DNA of 64,000 nucleotides from Isoetes taiwanensis. Its lineage: Eukaryota; Streptophyta; Lycopodiopsida; Isoetales; Isoetaceae. The notes under the pieces are model-generated. The model ran no database searches. It saw only the letters and a list, made by a program, of their open reading frames with translations, and was not told the DNA's origin. Positions 8,888 through 61,735 of the stretch are shown in pieces. The first letter of the stretch is position 1. Every line of letters begins with the position of its first letter. The position numbers were made by a program, and so were the translations under genes. The DNA is taken from contig JAJEKV010000072.1 of NCBI GenBank assembly GCA_021234155.1, positions 3,790,407-3,854,406 on the forward strand, in the 5' to 3' direction.

Positions 8888-9020
8888 AGTGCTTGGATTG
8901 GGCTACTAGTATTTACTTTTTGTTCTTAATGAACTACTTTGTATCTTTGGCATCCATGTGAACTAAACCAACAAGTTTGCCATATTGTAAATTAGTGTGT
9001 AAATGATTTTATATCTCTAA
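8888..9020 (+). other. Probable 3' flank of the 678-aa gene
   Basis: About 130 bp of AT-rich sequence separates the stop codon from the CTAG terminus of the minus-strand Helitron at 9021. No perfect AATAAA was seen, although AATGAA at 8928 could serve as a near-upstream element in plants. The Helitron therefore sits immediately downstream of this gene, tail to tail. Confidence 0.35.
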
Positions 9021-9050
9021 CTAGTAATGGTGCCCAGCGTTGCTGGGCAT
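9021..9050 (-). mobile_element. Helitron 3' terminus: hairpin plus CTAG
   Basis: Read on the minus strand, this is TGCCCAGCAACGCTGGGCA (8-bp stem, 3-base loop) followed by CCATTA and CTAG. The next host base is T. This is the canonical Helitron 3' end: short hairpin, CTRR, insertion before T. The same sequence ends a second element at 53963-53992 on the plus strand, and similarity stops right after CTAG-T in both. The helicase fragment at 9192-9671 lies upstream in the same orientation, as expected. Confidence 0.8.
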
Positions 9051-9144
9051 TCGTTGGAAGTTTGTAAATGTTTTTATTGCAATAAGAAATGTGTGTAGTA
9101 AGCTTTTACTATTGGAATAAAAAAATATTCGAACATAGTTATAG

Positions 9145-9163
9145 TGCCCAGTGCTGCTGGGTA
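9145..9163 (-). mobile_element. Degenerate second Helitron-like hairpin end
   Basis: Minus-strand TACCCAGCAGCACTGGGCA followed by CTATAACTATG closely resembles the terminus at 9021, with CTAT in place of CTAG. It lies about 120 bp inside that terminus. It could be the original end of an older copy, bypassed when a downstream CTAG was used, or a tandem end duplication. Confidence 0.5.
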
Positions 9164-49129: not shown

Positions 49130-49900
49130 CCACGACATATTTTTGTCGGTTTTCCTATCCGACATTGCCATTGGCGCACCCTTATTGTTATGTACACAAA
49201 ATTTGGAAGTCCGGAGGAGGCACTTAAAGTATTTTCTGATTTAGCCAAGCGGGATGTAGTATATGTTCAACATGGGAAAAGCAAGCTTGCAGTAGGTTGC
49301 TACAAACAACATCGCGTGAGAATATAAAACATGCATGTGGTGAAATATGTGCCATAAGTCAAGGCCAACATATCCATGAGCAAATAGTTGAAGATGGTAT
49401 TTGAAGATGGTATCCATTCGAGATTGTTATTGGAAGTGCACTTGTTGATATGTATTCCAAGTGCGAAGCTTGTTAGAAGCATTCAAAGTCTTTGACAAAT
49501 TGCCAAATAAAAACGTGGTGGTTTGGAGTGCCATGATCTTGGGATGTCTTTGAGATTGGTGAATTTGGATTGGGCTGCAGAGTGTTTTAAGAGGATGAAA
49601 AATCATGGAATTCAACCAAAATGATGTTGCATTCCTTGGCATACTCACAACACTCAATCGTGTGGGTTTGGCGAGATGAAGGCTTATGGTATGCCAGTCC
49701 ATGAGTGAATTCGATTCGTAAACTTCAACCTACTCCACATCACATGCATGATGGAACTTTTAAGCCATGCAGGATGTTTTAAAGAGGCGTAAGATTCCAT
49801 TCTTGTGAAACCTGATATTTGTGCGTGGGTGTCTCTGCTCACTACATGCAAAATGCACTACTAGGAAGAAAATGCTTTGAAGCAATTACGTATGTAAATT
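49130..49900 (+). pseudogene. Pentatricopeptide repeat (PPR) protein, decayed
   Basis: Across frames, PPR units are readable: LIVMYTKFGSPEEALKVFSD (49182), VIGSALVDMYSKCEAC (49428), AFKVFDKLPNKNVVVWSAMI (49479), ECFKRMKNHGIQPNDVAFLG (49583), then an E-domain-like stretch with SHAGCFKEA and PDICAWVSLLTTC (about 49760-49850). The VDMYSKC, VFDKLPNKNVVVWSAMI and GIQPN signatures are typical of plant PLS-class PPR proteins that edit or process organellar RNA. Several frameshifts and stops make it non-functional. The N-terminal targeting region is not found. Confidence 0.75.
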
Positions 49901-50717
49901 CCTTTCATTCTGGAGCATATGTCGATGGCCAACATGTAATATAATGCCCACGAGGAAGGACATGCTTATGAGAGACAGTTCCACCGAATATGAATACAAG
50001 GCTAATGTATCAAGATGTTCTATCGCGAATTGGATGACAAGGATCAAATTGCTTATAGGAATGATCACTAAGGGAGCTTGAGTAGGTTTAAAATTTATTC
50101 TCCGTGAAATGGACCAATCATTTGGAACCTTTGTGATGCTCGTCATAATCTACTTCTTTTTGCTGGATATGTGAAACAAGATTTGAGTCAGGTGAAACGA
50201 AAGAAATCTTCTCCCAAGAAAGATCCATCGGGAAAATCTCTAGTATTTGGCTCCTCTGTTTTTACTATCAAACTAGTCATTCAGGTTTTTCTCTGATTTC
50301 ATCACAGGATCTCTAAACTTATGGCCATTATCACCCAATTCATGATCGGATTAGCGTCATTACAATTTGAGTTAAATTATTGACAACATCCTCCTCCACG
50401 CTTACTAAGAAGCTGCGTTTTTGCACATCCGTTGTTTTTAAATCCTCATCGTTGAAAGGCTTACTTAGTGAAGCTTGTGCATTGCTAGGACCACCATCGC
50501 CATCAAAAGACAGAGGAAACGAAATGACGTAATAGCATCTTATATTATAATGTTGTGTAATGGACCACGCCCTAATTTGAAGGGCTAAGATCGTCCGAGC
50601 CTAATCTAAAGGCCGAGATGTTTCACCTCTAGGTTTTTTTTTTCTAGGGTTTTGTTTCTATGGTTTTGTTTCCTTCTTTTTTACCTTCTCGGCTCCACCT
50701 TCTTCCTCTTTTCTTCA

Positions 50718-50916
50718 CGTAAAAGCAGGGTGCCGTAGATTCTGCTCGAACAACCAATCACGCCTTGCCACGTGGCAGCGATTCTTTTCAAGAATGTCGC
50801 CCTCTATTTTCGCCCGCGATTCTGCACGACATTCTCATTTTCACTTGACATTCTTTACTACAGCCGCTGGATGTGCGACACGTGGCGCCGAATCTACGGC
50901 CACCCTGCTTTCACGT
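50718..50916. mobile_element. ~200-bp foldback (MITE-like) element
   Basis: CACGTAAAAGCAGGGTGCCG followed by TAGATTC at the left edge pairs with GAATCTACGGCCACCCTGCT followed by TTCACGT at the right edge (26-27 bp, one gap). Inside, ATTCT/AGAAT words and CCACGTGGC at 50768 versus ACACGTGGC at 50880 are also roughly mirrored. The size and arms fit a MITE. Clear target duplications are not evident. Confidence 0.65.
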
Positions 50917-50918
50917 TG

Positions 50919-51024
50919 CAGGAACGCCCCTCTGCCTTCGATTCCGGCGAGTCAGGCAGGCCTCCGCGCTGCCGCGCGTCGGCCAGCCTTCCTCGCCGGA
51001 ATCGAAGGCAGAGGGGCGTTCCTG
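50919..51024. repeat. Perfect 32-bp inverted repeat with 42-bp spacer
   Basis: The 32 bases at 50919-50950 (CAGGAACGCCCCTCTGCCTT, then CGATTCCGGCGA) are exactly the reverse complement of 50993-51024. The GC-rich spacer extends the pairing imperfectly. It begins three bases after the foldback element at 50718-50916 and ends just before the KOBITO1-like pseudogene. Confidence 0.8.
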
Positions 51025-51965
51025 TATACGGATGGCATATGTCTAAAATGCTTCGACTCACTGAGATGGATGCCCACACTTTCTGTGCATGCTGTAGATT
51101 CTGGCAGCCAGGATGGCCAAGGTGTTCTGTGCAAGGACGGCCAGAAGCTATGTTCGTCAAAATGACATCAGTTCTGAATCCCATTATCTGGATGTTGAGC
51201 AAGAGACGCAGTGCCAACAAAAGGCAAGAATTTTATCTGATCAAACTCAGGCTTTCATTCAAGCTTTCAATTAAAGTCTTTCGATTTTTTATGCTTTGAT
51301 GCAGGAAAGTTAATTGGGACTTCTTAGCAAGTATGGCTACAGGACAAGTTATGGCTATTGCTGCTATTCGGCACCATTTCATCGGCATGTCCAATGCGTT
51401 CGTGGTGACCTCTAATGCTATCAATGCATGCTTCTTTTGGCAGTTACCAGAGCTGCTTGAGTAAGAAAAGGTACCAAGCATGGTTATTGGGGTTTCAAAC
51501 TTTTCTTTTTCTTACGTGGAGGCCAAACCTGCAACTCCGAATGTGTCTATGGTTCTTGAGAGCATTTCAGGAGTGAAAGTGACTTACAGGACCAAGGAGC
51601 TCGACGAAAAGCAGGTCAAGAGTAGAATATGGAACGAAACTTGGCTGTCAAGCTTTTTTTTGTTTTGTTTTCAGGCCATGCAATTATGAGTTATTTGTTA
51701 GGCAATCCCTTAACATGGAGATGGCAATAGTCATGGCTAGGAATACATGTATGAATTGGATTATTCATCTTGACATAGATGAACTTCTGAATCTTGGAGG
51801 AGGAGCTGTTGAATATTCTCTGAGAAGATTGTTGCGGATATTTCTTCTGATGTTAATATGGTGGTTTTCCCCAATTATGAGAGAGCAATTGAGAGAGATG
51901 ATACTACTGATCCTTTCACTCAAGTTACAATACTTAAGAACTATAATCATGTCACAAAGGAGACA
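51025..51965 (+). pseudogene. KOBITO1-like (GT92/DUF23) protein, truncated and frameshifted
   Basis: After a TTTGATGCAG acceptor (51304), the frame reads VNWDFLASMATGQVMAIAAI and INACFFWQLPELLE, then a TAA at about 51462. It continues with [37 protein letters not shown], a pyrimidine-rich intrusion ending TTTTCAG, then [20 protein letters not shown] and [11 protein letters not shown] (the D-x-D-like site). A +1 shift near 51836 leads to [20 protein letters not shown]. This matches KOBITO1/ELD1, a plant type II membrane glycosyltransferase-like protein needed for cellulose deposition and cell growth. Similarity stops near 51960, before the conserved C-terminal half. A possible earlier exon lies at 51030-51221 (DGICLKCFDSLRWMPTLSVH). 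Confidence 0.8.
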
Positions 51966-53090
51966 GAATTAGATGCAAAGGAAAGCTCAGTACTGCTGAA
52001 AAGGAGCAATCAGAAGAAAGTTTGGCAAAGGATGAAATTATGGAGAAGTTAGAGCTTGATGGAGGAGGAGAATTAGAAAGCTCTGTTTTAACTGCTGAAA
52101 AGAGGCAAGCAGGAGAAATTTTGGCAAAGGATGAAATTCCTGAGATATTAATCTGGAACAAAAAGTTCACCTTATTGGGAATGAAGAAGAGAATGGAGAT
52201 GCAGTTTTGATTGACGAAAAGCATGAAAACTCTTCTGTTGCTTCTGCGAGGCTAGAATTTGAGGAAAAGAACAAACACCCACACATAAATTTAGCCAGAG
52301 GATTTCCCCTGAGAAGTTGGATTTGAGAAAGAATCAGAGCAAGGAATTTGAAGATTCCATAGATTACTTGCAATTGGTTGAAGAATTGTCAGACCTTTCC
52401 AAGCTTCACGACACAGCAGACCAGGTTGCAGAGGTAGCAGAGCATCTTCTTCCCAAAATCAGAAAGCTCTCTCACAAATCAAAGGTTATTTCAATCTTGC
52501 ACATCAGCAGATTACATAAAGGGTGACTCCAATTATAGGGCACGAATATGCATCCATAGCTGCCATCATAATCTCCTACTCCATCTTGCTGATACCAAAT
52601 CTGTTTTTAATCTTTATGCTCGATAAAATCAAGGCCATCTTTTCGCTGGACAAATTTCTGCTCTTCAACAACATTTATCTAATAACTTCAGTAGCAACTC
52701 TGCGATTTATGAATCTAATTCTGGGTACTGAGCCATTACAATATTTGCGAAAGAGTGCGCCTTCGATTTTCATATTCCTGCAGCTGCTTCAGGGAAATTT
52801 ATTTTGTATGTTTGCTGCTATACAGTTTCAATTTGACCACAGTTTGTTCAGGGAATAAAATTCGAGCTAAAGTGGGAGCTTTGATGCAGTGGAGCATTGT
52901 GCTACATTATTATGTTGCAGTTTTTCCTAGGGCCATGGCTAGGAAGGCACCTGGATCGGGGGCTTATGTGCTGTATTTATTGGGTTTGGCTTGGCTCTTG
53001 CTCTTCATTCGTCCGAAAAGAGGTAAGAAAGAGTATACTGGAAAAGACACTAGGGAGGGTTCAAGGAAAATCTCAACACTTTGGTACAAA
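51965..53090 (+). pseudogene. Plant multi-pass membrane protein fragment fused downstream of the KOBITO1-like piece
   Basis: A charged section starts with LSTAEKEQSEESLAKDEIME and KRQAGEILAKDEIPE. After shifts comes VEELSDLSKLHDTADQVAEV then AEHLLPKIRKLSHKSK (52375-52480). A hydrophobic frame (52523-52858) follows with three or four likely membrane helices, including SYSILLIPNLFLIFML and PSIFIFLQLLQGNLFCMF. After one more shift near 52855 come LHYYVAVFPRAMARKAPGSG and YVLYLLGLAWLLLFIRP, with a basic end. LLPKIRKLSHKSK followed by membrane helices and HYYV-VF-RAM resembles an uncharacterised plant membrane-protein family that I know only by pattern. Three or more frameshifts make it a pseudogene. 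Confidence 0.6.
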
Positions 53091-53962
53091 GAAAAAAGGA
53101 CCCAAGGTGCTTTTACGTGATGTGGAAGCAAGCATATTGTTTACAAGGATATGTGTGGTAAACATTTGTTAGTACCTAACATCATCTCACCATAATCATT
53201 CTTTGTGTCATGCCTCAATATGACCATGCATCTCTCTACATCTTCAAGTATTAAGACATTCAGATGGTTCAGACTTCATTCAAAAATACCACTCTACATT
53301 AAGAAATACCACTCTACATTAGGAGATATGGTACAGATAGAGGTACATCAAGAACCATGTCCATGATGTTCTTGCTATCATTAATCGACTTATATAATTA
53401 TATTTTTGCATTCTGCGGTTGGAGTCTTGGCACAAAACTGAAGAGTTCGCTACATAGTATGTGTGCACTTTGCCAATATTCTGTAACTCTAATAAAAGGT
53501 TCATTTTGTTTGTTTGTTGCTCCAAAATAGTGCTCCTGAGCAATCACTAATGTAGGCTTGATTCATCATCTGTTAAATGACTAATACGGGGTTTGGATAT
53601 AGTAATGCTGGCACTGTAGACTGTAAGTTGAAAAGAGATAATAACTCTTTTATGGACGTTACAACAATATCAAAATTGGTTTATCTATATGCTAAATGTA
53701 TTTCTAATTTCTACATGTTTCTAAACATTCAACCTATGCATAGAAAATATTAAGACATTTGATCAAAGGAAATAATACAAAACAAAGAAAGCATCCTCCT
53801 CCTCTCACATCCAAACTCTTTAGTCTATTCAGAAGAGAAATTGAAAAGATCAAAACCAATTGCAAATGAGTATATAGAAGAATCAACAATAACATGCCTA
53901 ATACCACAAGAAGCAATTCCACTTAATGTTATAGGCACCCCAACATTTGCAGGTTCCAAATT

Positions 53963-53992
53963 ATGCCCAGCAACGCTGGGCACCATAACTAG
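53963..53992 (+). mobile_element. Second Helitron 3' terminus: hairpin plus CTAG
   Basis: ATGCCCAGCAACGCTGGGCA, then CCATAA, then CTAG (53989-53992), with T as the next base. Over this segment it differs from the minus-strand terminus at 9021 by one base, and similarity ends right after CTAG-T. This marks the 3' end of a plus-strand Helitron. The chimeric pseudogene (51.0-53.1 kb) lies 0.9 kb upstream in the same orientation. The 5' TC end was not identified, so the length of the element is unknown. Confidence 0.8.
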
Positions 53993-53999
53993 TAGGATT

Positions 54000-60879: not shown

Positions 60880-61735
60880 AAAGGCTGCAACTTGAAGTAA
60901 CAAAGCATTAGAGGAATAAGAACAAAGAAGAAAAAGATCGAAGAAGAAAGAAAAAGGAAAAAAAAAGGGGGGGATAGAAAACAAGAGATAGAAATAAAAC
61001 AAGAGAAAGAAATAAAGAGAATAGAAGGGAAGAAATAAGGATAGAATAGAGAAGAAATAAGAGAAGAAACAAGAAAGAATGAAGAAAAATAAGAGGAAAT
61101 AAAGAAGGGAAGGGAATAGAATGGAAGGAAGAAATAAGGGAGGGAAAGAAAAGGATCGAATGGAAAGTGAGGAAGAAATGTGAAGAATAAGAAACAAATG
61201 AAGAATGAAGAAATGAAATTAAAAAGAATGAAGAATAAGAAATGAAAAAAAAAATGAAGAATAAGGAAGGGAAGAGAAGAAAAGAAATGAGGGAAGGGGA
61301 AGGGAGGGAAAAGAATTAGGAAATGAAAGCATGAGAAAAGAATGGAAATGAGAAACAAATGAGAAAATGAGAAAGCATGAAAGAAATGAGAAAGAAATGA
61401 GAAAGCATGAGAAAAGAAATGAAAGAAAGCAAGAAATTAGAAAGAATGAGGAAGAATGAGAAAGAGTGAGGAATAAAGAATGAAAGCATGAGGAAGAAAG
61501 AAATGAGAAAGAATGAGGAAGAAAAGAATGAGAAAGAAATGAGGAAAAGAAGAAATATGGGAAAGAAAAGAATGAGGAAAAGAATGAAGCATGGAAGAAG
61601 GAGGAAGAAATGAAGCATGAGGAAGAATGAGGAAGAAATGAAGCATGAGAAAGAAAGAAGGAGGAAGAATCAAGAAAAAAAAATCAAGAACAAAGAAGAA
61701 GAGGAAGGAAAGGAAACCAAAAAAAGAGGAAGGTT
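60880..61735 (+). repeat. ~850-bp polypurine (GA-rich) tract
   Basis: The plus strand is almost only A and G, with words such as GAGAAAGAAATGAG and GAGGAAGAATGAGAAAG repeated irregularly. Long minus-strand open frames here encode only Phe/Leu/Ser/Pro-rich peptides and are artefacts. Such tracts can form triplex (H-DNA) structures. Confidence 0.9.

What the first reader, a model, noticed from the sequence alone, without database searches (positions are those of the whole stretch)
51025..53992. Two unrelated host-gene fragments fused head to tail upstream of a Helitron 3' end
A KOBITO1-like piece (51.0-51.96 kb) loses its conserved C-terminal half and passes directly into part of an unrelated multi-pass membrane protein (51.97-53.1 kb). 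Both are in the same orientation, and a canonical Helitron terminus on the same strand follows at 53992. This is the arrangement produced when a Helitron captures gene fragments. Intron-like traces near 51222-51305 and 51655-51674 suggest capture at DNA level, not by retroposition.
Basis: partly seen in the sequence, partly recalled or inferred. Interest (0 to 1): 0.78.

Follow-up and report, generated by a model that had tools for sequence, protein, structure and literature searches.

The report
Helitron fusing pieces of two genes
A 3.5-kb jumping gene of the Helitron type in a plant genome carries broken pieces of two unrelated host genes fused end to end, apparently made by joining two older gene-carrying Helitrons; it is a clear but ordinary example of a known way that transposons shuffle genes.

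Summary
The chimera lies inside one Helitron, window 50538-53992 (3455 bp): TC start, 3' hairpin, CTAG end, between A and T. Six empty copies of the site read straight across that A|T. The 3' end recurs 9,926 times in the 1.66-Gb genome, a 5' motif 688 times. A Rep/helicase element with an open frame shares the 3' end.

The KOBITO1-like part is only 51482-51965; 51031-51474 is another fragment of unknown origin, and 50720-51027 is an inserted repeat. Intact parents exist elsewhere: a 517-aa KOBITO1-like gene and an 831-aa membrane-protein gene.

In 18 sequences compared, apart from family-wide termini, sequence left of 51965 matches elements without the membrane gene; sequence right of it matches the gene, Helitrons carrying it, or loci sharing its 3' module. 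So the fusion most likely joined two gene-carrying Helitrons. The junction is unique in the assembly and the frames are decayed.

The intron argument fails: both parents have uninterrupted frames. New member of a known kind.

The parts
50538..53992 (+). Non-autonomous Helitron, whole element (3455 bp), inserted between A (50537) and T (53993), no target-site duplication
   Evidence: Six empty sites read TAATAGCA (five) or TAATAACA (one) followed by TAGGATTAAG; termini shared with relatives
50538..50558 (+). 5' terminus TCTTATATTATAATGTTGTGT
   Evidence: Only match in the window; 688 genome matches to an extended motif at up to 2 mismatches, control 1; preceded by A in 14 of 14 distinct matches in the loci held
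50538..50719 (+). 5' module, 97% identical to another Helitron at C1037; also in KOBITO1-carrying C1106 (91%, partial) and C1034 (83%)
50720..51027 (.). Inserted dispersed repeat (308 bp) with inverted repeats, flanked by a 3-bp ACG repeat; absent from the C1106 copy
   Evidence: Many of the 69 matches cover about 50717-51029; C1106 lacks it; ACG repeat read
51031..51474 (+). Fragment E, origin unknown, shared with KOBITO1-carrying Helitrons; part 51133-51306 also found at other loci
51482..51965 (+). KOBITO1-like gene fragment, about residues 132-289 of a 517-aa intact frame
   Evidence: 428 of 468 aligned sites identical to C930
51965..51965 (+). Fusion junction, one-base overlap between the two sources; one match in the genome
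51966..53256 (+). Membrane-protein gene fragment, about residue 434 to the end of an 831-aa intact frame plus about 200 bp beyond its stop
   Evidence: 1035 of 1091 aligned sites identical in the coding part
53257..53992 (+). 3' module shared with Helitrons at C307 and C908 in which no KOBITO1 match was found; 53734-53992 is 94.7% identical to C908:7333k (L024)
53965..53981 (+). 3' hairpin, 7-bp stem and 3-nt loop
   Evidence: folds at -8.5 kcal/mol, 0 of 200 shuffles as good
53989..53992 (+). CTAG 3' end
   Evidence: 24 of 24 distinct CTAG ends in the loci held are followed by T; six of these (L001-L004 and the two in the window) had been found with patterns that include the T

Best explanation
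This is a non-autonomous Helitron, presumably moved in trans by Rep/helicase elements of the same family. Shown: exact borders, A|T target, no duplication, shared termini, two captured fragments with intact parents, and a single junction with one-base overlap. Inferred: the element formed when the 5' half of a KOBITO1-carrying Helitron was joined to the 3' half of a Helitron carrying the membrane-protein gene, by template switching or an internal deletion in a composite copy during replicative transposition. The fused product then inserted here and has been decaying. No protein function is expected.
For: Empty sites. Termini and counts. A relative with an uninterrupted 1198-aa frame, Helitron_like_N 3.8e-61 and PIF1 1.5e-58, ends in the same 3' terminus. 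By module, 18 sequences compared: 50538-50719 and 51031-51965 match C1106, C1034, C917, C952, C1060, C1037 (5' module only) and the KOBITO1-like gene. From the membrane-gene group, this side has only a 38-bp terminus match in the C307 element, plus a 72% match at another 5' end in the same fetched stretch. 51966-53938 matches only the membrane gene (C1086; also C1045), C307, five C908 elements and loci L024-L026. The last ~50 bp match both groups. The membrane-gene elements share one border at 53256 and a 12-bp deletion, which points to one capture event, but their gene fragments start at different places, about 51965, 52426 and 52746-52750, so 5' halves have been exchanged. Junction unique. 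Frame-breaking indels in both fragments, one in-frame stop, and mostly amino-acid-changing substitutions.
Against: The immediate precursor, a membrane-gene Helitron whose fragment starts upstream of 51965, was not found, so the order of events is not proven. The genome DNA search scored only 40 of 704 candidates, so relatives are missing from the comparison. The junction rests on one assembly; reads could not be checked, and that assembly appears to carry consensus errors in repeats. No 3'-terminus remnant of the KOBITO1-carrying parent was found at the junction, so a composite-element route needs an extra deletion.
Confidence: 0.8

Rival explanations
1. Stepwise capture: one Helitron first captured KOBITO1 and later captured the membrane gene, as proposed for maize.
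For: Stepwise capture is described in maize (PMC3288121, passages read). The window element has the longest membrane-gene fragment among the Helitron copies found, so it could be near the original.
Against: The 3' module is shared with elements in which no KOBITO1 was found and differs from the 3' part of KOBITO1-carrying ones except the last ~50 bp; one element capturing twice would keep its own 3' part unless the end was replaced too.
Confidence: 0.15
2. Nested or neighbouring Helitrons: transposition began at the 5' end of a KOBITO1-carrying element, ran past its own 3' end and stopped at the 3' end of a membrane-gene element, followed by an internal deletion. This is a sub-case of the best explanation and its probability is counted there.
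For: End bypass is shown experimentally for Helraiser (PMC4778049, passages) and a nested route is proposed in maize (PMC3288121). Nested Helitrons occur here, for example the reverse one inside C1106 (read by eye).
Against: No internal 3' terminus was found inside the window, C307 or the fetched C908 elements at up to 5 mismatches, so each case needs a precise deletion as well.
Confidence: 0.3
3. Retroposed fusion transcript or readthrough of adjacent genes later picked up by a Helitron.
For: Both fragments are in the same orientation and both parents have uninterrupted frames, so introns cannot exclude an RNA step.
Against: Intact parent copies found are on different contigs; the junction is inside both coding regions with no poly(A) visible; the fragment continues past the membrane gene's stop.
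Confidence: 0.03
4. Assembly artefact at 51965.
For: The junction occurs once, and consensus problems in repeats are likely in this assembly.
Against: The join lies inside one 7-Mb contig within an element whose outer borders match six empty sites; short-read polishing changes bases, not kilobase order (general knowledge).
Confidence: 0.03

Closest known systems
Gene-capturing Helitrons of maize (helA; stepwise capture, PMC3288121, passages seen)
   Same: Non-autonomous, CTAG 3' end, several gene fragments per element, mosaic relatives, internal pseudo 3' termini ending CTAT
   Different: Different plant and terminus sequence; here the fusion point separates two groups of gene-carrying elements
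Helraiser/Helibat1 of bats (PMC4778049, passages seen)
   Same: TC/CTAG ends, palindrome 11 nt before the 3' end, end bypass as a capture route
   Different: No experiment here; the bat capture test concerns 3' read-through, whereas here 5' halves vary and the 3' half is constant
Composite FoHelis of Fusarium oxysporum (PMC5148889, passages seen)
   Same: Several 5' termini combined with one 3' terminus, nested elements
   Different: Those belong to the Helitron2 variant by their termini; the 5' duplications there are short (<200 bp), and the paper lists 27 putative gene captures without finding an important role for them
KOBITO1 / glycosyltransferase-like gene of land plants
   Same: Source of 51482-51965; the intact homologue has a weak PF13704 match (1.1e-5, 26.3 bits against a 27.5 cut-off) and PF01697 at 0.021

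Membership tests
Helitron | 5' end TC preceded by A | tested here: met
   50537 A, 50538 TC; 14 of 14 distinct 5' matches in loci held preceded by A
Helitron | 3' end CTRR followed by T | tested here: met
   CTAG at 53989-53992, T at 53993; 24 of 24 distinct CTAG ends followed by T. Two motif matches without CTAG (L023; window 9135) were set aside. L001-L004 and the two window ends had been found with patterns that include the T
Helitron | Short hairpin about 10-12 nt before the 3' end | tested here: met
   53965-53981, 11 nt before the end
Helitron | Insertion at AT without target-site duplication | tested here: met
   Six empty sites
Helitron | Autonomous partner with Rep (HUH) and PIF1-type helicase and matching ends | tested here: inconclusive
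   L044 has a 1198-aa frame with PF14214 and PF05970 and the same 3' terminus. Its 5' end was not located, so matching is shown for one end only.
Helitron | Rolling-circle transposition | not testable with these tools
   needs an experiment
KOBITO1-like gene | Full-length uninterrupted coding frame | tested here: not met
   The window match covers about residues 132-291 with 7 stops in the reading; it is a fragment, not a gene
KOBITO1-like gene | Derived from that gene | tested here: met
   91.5% identity over 468 ungapped sites; 87.7% over 488 columns when gaps count

The most novel reading that the evidence does not exclude
A Helitron-borne fragment wrote part of itself back into its parent gene. 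One copy of the membrane-protein gene (C1045) shows no substitution, only a few small indels, against the intact copy (C1086) over the rest of the gene. But over about 320-380 bp it is identical to the Helitron copy at C307, including a 10-bp and a 2-bp deletion that break the frame. If real, captured fragments can disable their donors by gene conversion.
Probability: 0.12. Interest if true: 0.65.

Novelty: new member of a known kind. Interest (0 to 1): 0.35.

Why it matters
It is a well-bounded case, with empty sites and identified parents, of Helitrons shuffling host genes in what is very probably a lycophyte, and it shows 5' halves being swapped within a captured gene. It suggests that some multi-gene Helitrons arise by fusing gene-carrying Helitrons, which a genome-wide breakpoint survey could test. 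Gene capture itself is well known.

Tried and rejected
Introns as evidence for DNA-level capture: rejected, since both parents have uninterrupted frames and 51655-51674 is a T-tract difference. DNA-level capture remains likely because no poly(A) tail is seen and sequence past the stop is included, but this is inference.

Gene conversion of C1045: weakened. In a 14-kb comparison, blocks with no mismatches alternate with blocks of up to 38 mismatches per 200 columns, and the paper on the assembly that this genome matches says it was ONT-based and polished with racon and pilon (PMC8566536, passages). Mis-polishing from repeat reads is the likelier cause; not tested on reads.

Parent of fragment E: not found. 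Three further loci carry a piece without a clear gene around it. The paralogues of the membrane gene at C1019 and C1055 were fetched but not analysed. Search of plasmids with a KOBITO1 piece: no match and not informative. Pfam gave nothing significant for seven of the window's broken frames and nothing for the membrane protein at E up to 1. Dating was not attempted for lack of a rate. RNA evidence was not available. The membrane protein's multi-pass nature is read by eye from its sequence; no predictor was run.

A change from 87% to 99% identity with C1106 at 51693 coincides with a nested reverse Helitron there; irregular indels on the 87% side look like assembly error, not tested.

Full report
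What was checked. The window lies in a genome of 1,658,258,908 bases in 1110 contigs. This matches the Isoetes taiwanensis assembly described as 1658.30 Mb in 204 scaffolds plus 909 contigs (PMC8566536, passages seen), so the organism is very probably that lycophyte; the name is inferred. The word Helitron occurs 0 times in that paper's main text. Two library searches pairing Isoetes with Helitron terms each listed the same two papers, neither an Isoetes genome paper by its title (listings only).

Borders. The 3' end GCCCAGCAACGCTGGGCACCATAACTAG|T is at 53965-53993, and a second copy lies at 9020-9048 on the other strand. The pattern, with A or T at one position, has 4942 forward and 4984 reverse matches genome-wide at up to 3 mismatches, against 0 for the reversed-pattern control. 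Comparing two C908 elements (L009, L010) showed a common left border A|TCTTATATTATAATG. The same motif occurs once in the window, at 50538, and an extended form 688 times in the genome at up to 2 mismatches, against 1 for the control. Joined flanks of 300+300 bases gave 36 matches; six of them run continuously across the join: C952 twice, C48, C34, C1053 and C1019. Five of the six read TAATAGCA and one TAATAACA, each followed directly by TAGGATTAAG. The element is therefore exactly 50538-53992, at an A|T site with no duplication. In the loci held, 14 of 14 distinct 5' matches follow A and 24 of 24 distinct CTAG ends precede T. Two motif matches lacking CTAG were set aside (L023 and window 9135). 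Six of the 24 (L001-L004 and the two in the window) had been found with patterns that already include the T.

Contents. The KOBITO1-like parent is an uninterrupted 517-aa frame at C930, with a second copy at C68 that is 99% identical in protein. A protein search scored 44 of 44 candidates and listed 29 matches. Only these two are full length; none of the other 27 starts before residue 128 or ends after residue 443. Of the five best-matching fragment loci, all fetched, C917, C952 and C1060 have both Helitron ends in the right orientation, C1034 a 5' end only and C1106 a 3' end only in the fetched stretch. This fits one capture of the middle of the gene followed by spreading. The parent has a weak match to Glyco_tranf_2_4 (1.1e-5, just under the curated cut-off). 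The membrane-protein parent is an uninterrupted 831-aa frame at C1086. A search with part of the C1045 copy scored 23 of 23 candidates and gave 13 matches, including distant relatives at 30-35% identity. In the window, KOBITO1 occupies 51482-51965 and the membrane gene 51966-53256. Bases 51031-51474 come from an unidentified source (fragment E). Bases 50720-51027 are a separate dispersed repeat inserted in the 5' part: it is absent from C1106 and accounts for many of the 69 matches.

Junction. The window follows the KOBITO1 sequence to the A at 51965 and the membrane gene from that same A. A 37-base pattern across the join has one match in the genome, the window itself, at up to 3 mismatches. 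The copies at C1106, C930, C68, C1034, C917, C952 and C1060 go on into further KOBITO1 sequence instead, four of them (C1034, C917, C952, C1060) after a short gap.

How it arose. Each module except the inserted repeat was compared with 18 fetched sequences. The 5' module, fragment E and KOBITO1 match KOBITO1-carrying Helitrons, the KOBITO1-like gene, or another Helitron (C1037, 5' module only). From the membrane-gene group, this side has only 38 bp of 5' terminus in the C307 element and a 72% match at another 5' end in the same stretch. The membrane-gene and 3' modules match the membrane gene, C307, five C908 elements and loci L024-L026; only the last ~50 bp match both groups. One search lists further short matches to 53250-53478 and 53734-53985 that were not fetched. 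The membrane-gene Helitrons share the 53256 border and a 12-bp deletion, which points to one capture. Their fragments begin at different points, about 51965, 52426 and 52746-52750, each joined to a different 5' part. The C908 5' parts include sequence 87% identical to part of Rep/helicase elements. The C307 5' part is itself a patchwork: its matches elsewhere fall in blocks, and none but itself spans it (40 of 185 candidates scored). So 5' halves appear to have been exchanged repeatedly, and the window element is one product. I infer template switching or deletion within a composite element; no internal 3' terminus was found in the window, C307 or fetched C908 elements. A stepwise capture history is not excluded.

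Mobility and state. A relative (L044) has a 1198-aa frame with Rep and PIF1 helicase domains and ends in the same 3' terminus. Its 5' end was not found. L045 is a 97% identical relative with broken frames. The captured frames in the window are broken. KOBITO1: 91.5% identical, frame-breaking indels of 1 and 10 bases, 27 substitutions in amino-acid-changing codons against 13 in silent ones. Membrane gene: 94.9% identical, nine deletions of which five are not multiples of three, one stop, 41 against 12. Some of these differences may be assembly errors.

Results against the reading. No precursor with a longer membrane-gene fragment was found. The assembly shows signs of consensus error in repeats. 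The search tool scores only part of the candidates for repeats (40 of 704), so related elements have surely been missed. Only one end of the presumed autonomous partner was matched.

Known background. Helitron gene capture, stepwise capture and pseudo 3' termini are described in maize (PMC3288121, passages). End bypass and hairpin termination are shown with a bat element (PMC4778049, passages). Composite elements are described in Fusarium (PMC5148889, passages). A recent review of gene capture in plants was searched by term (PMC13317346, passages); 'gene conversion' occurs 0 times in its main text. The finding is a new member of a known kind.

Noticed in passing
L007 about 2050-2460 (C1045), compared with L008 and L011: One copy of the membrane-protein gene is identical to a Helitron-borne copy over about 320-380 bp, including two frame-breaking deletions, while showing no substitution against the intact gene copy over the rest of the gene; gene conversion or, more likely, a polishing error.
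   Followed up: partly
window 9021-9162 (minus strand); L044, L045: A second, degenerate 3' terminus ending CTAT instead of CTAG lies exactly 114 bp before the true end in L044, its broken relative L045 and the window's other Helitron end; 65 genome matches to it at up to 2 mismatches, control 0. Pseudo 3' termini ending CTAT are described in maize (PMC3288121).
   Followed up: partly
G000 genome-wide: The genome is rich in Helitrons: 9,926 matches to this 3' end, and 150 Rep-domain matches from the 150 of 1813 candidates that were scored, with 0 of 14 control genomes matching.
   Followed up: partly
window 50720-51027: Dispersed repeat of 308 bp with two inverted repeats and a possible 3-bp target duplication, at many places in the genome; not assigned to a family.
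   Followed up: partly
window 49130-50100: Sequence resembling a decayed pentatricopeptide-repeat (PPR) gene near the insertion site, read by eye from the six-frame list.
   Followed up: no
L015 (C1106): What looks by eye like a reverse-oriented Helitron of about 2.08 kb, with diverged ends, is nested inside the KOBITO1 fragment of another Helitron.
   Followed up: partly
window 61181-61660: Purine-rich imperfect tandem repeats with strong strand skew.
   Followed up: no
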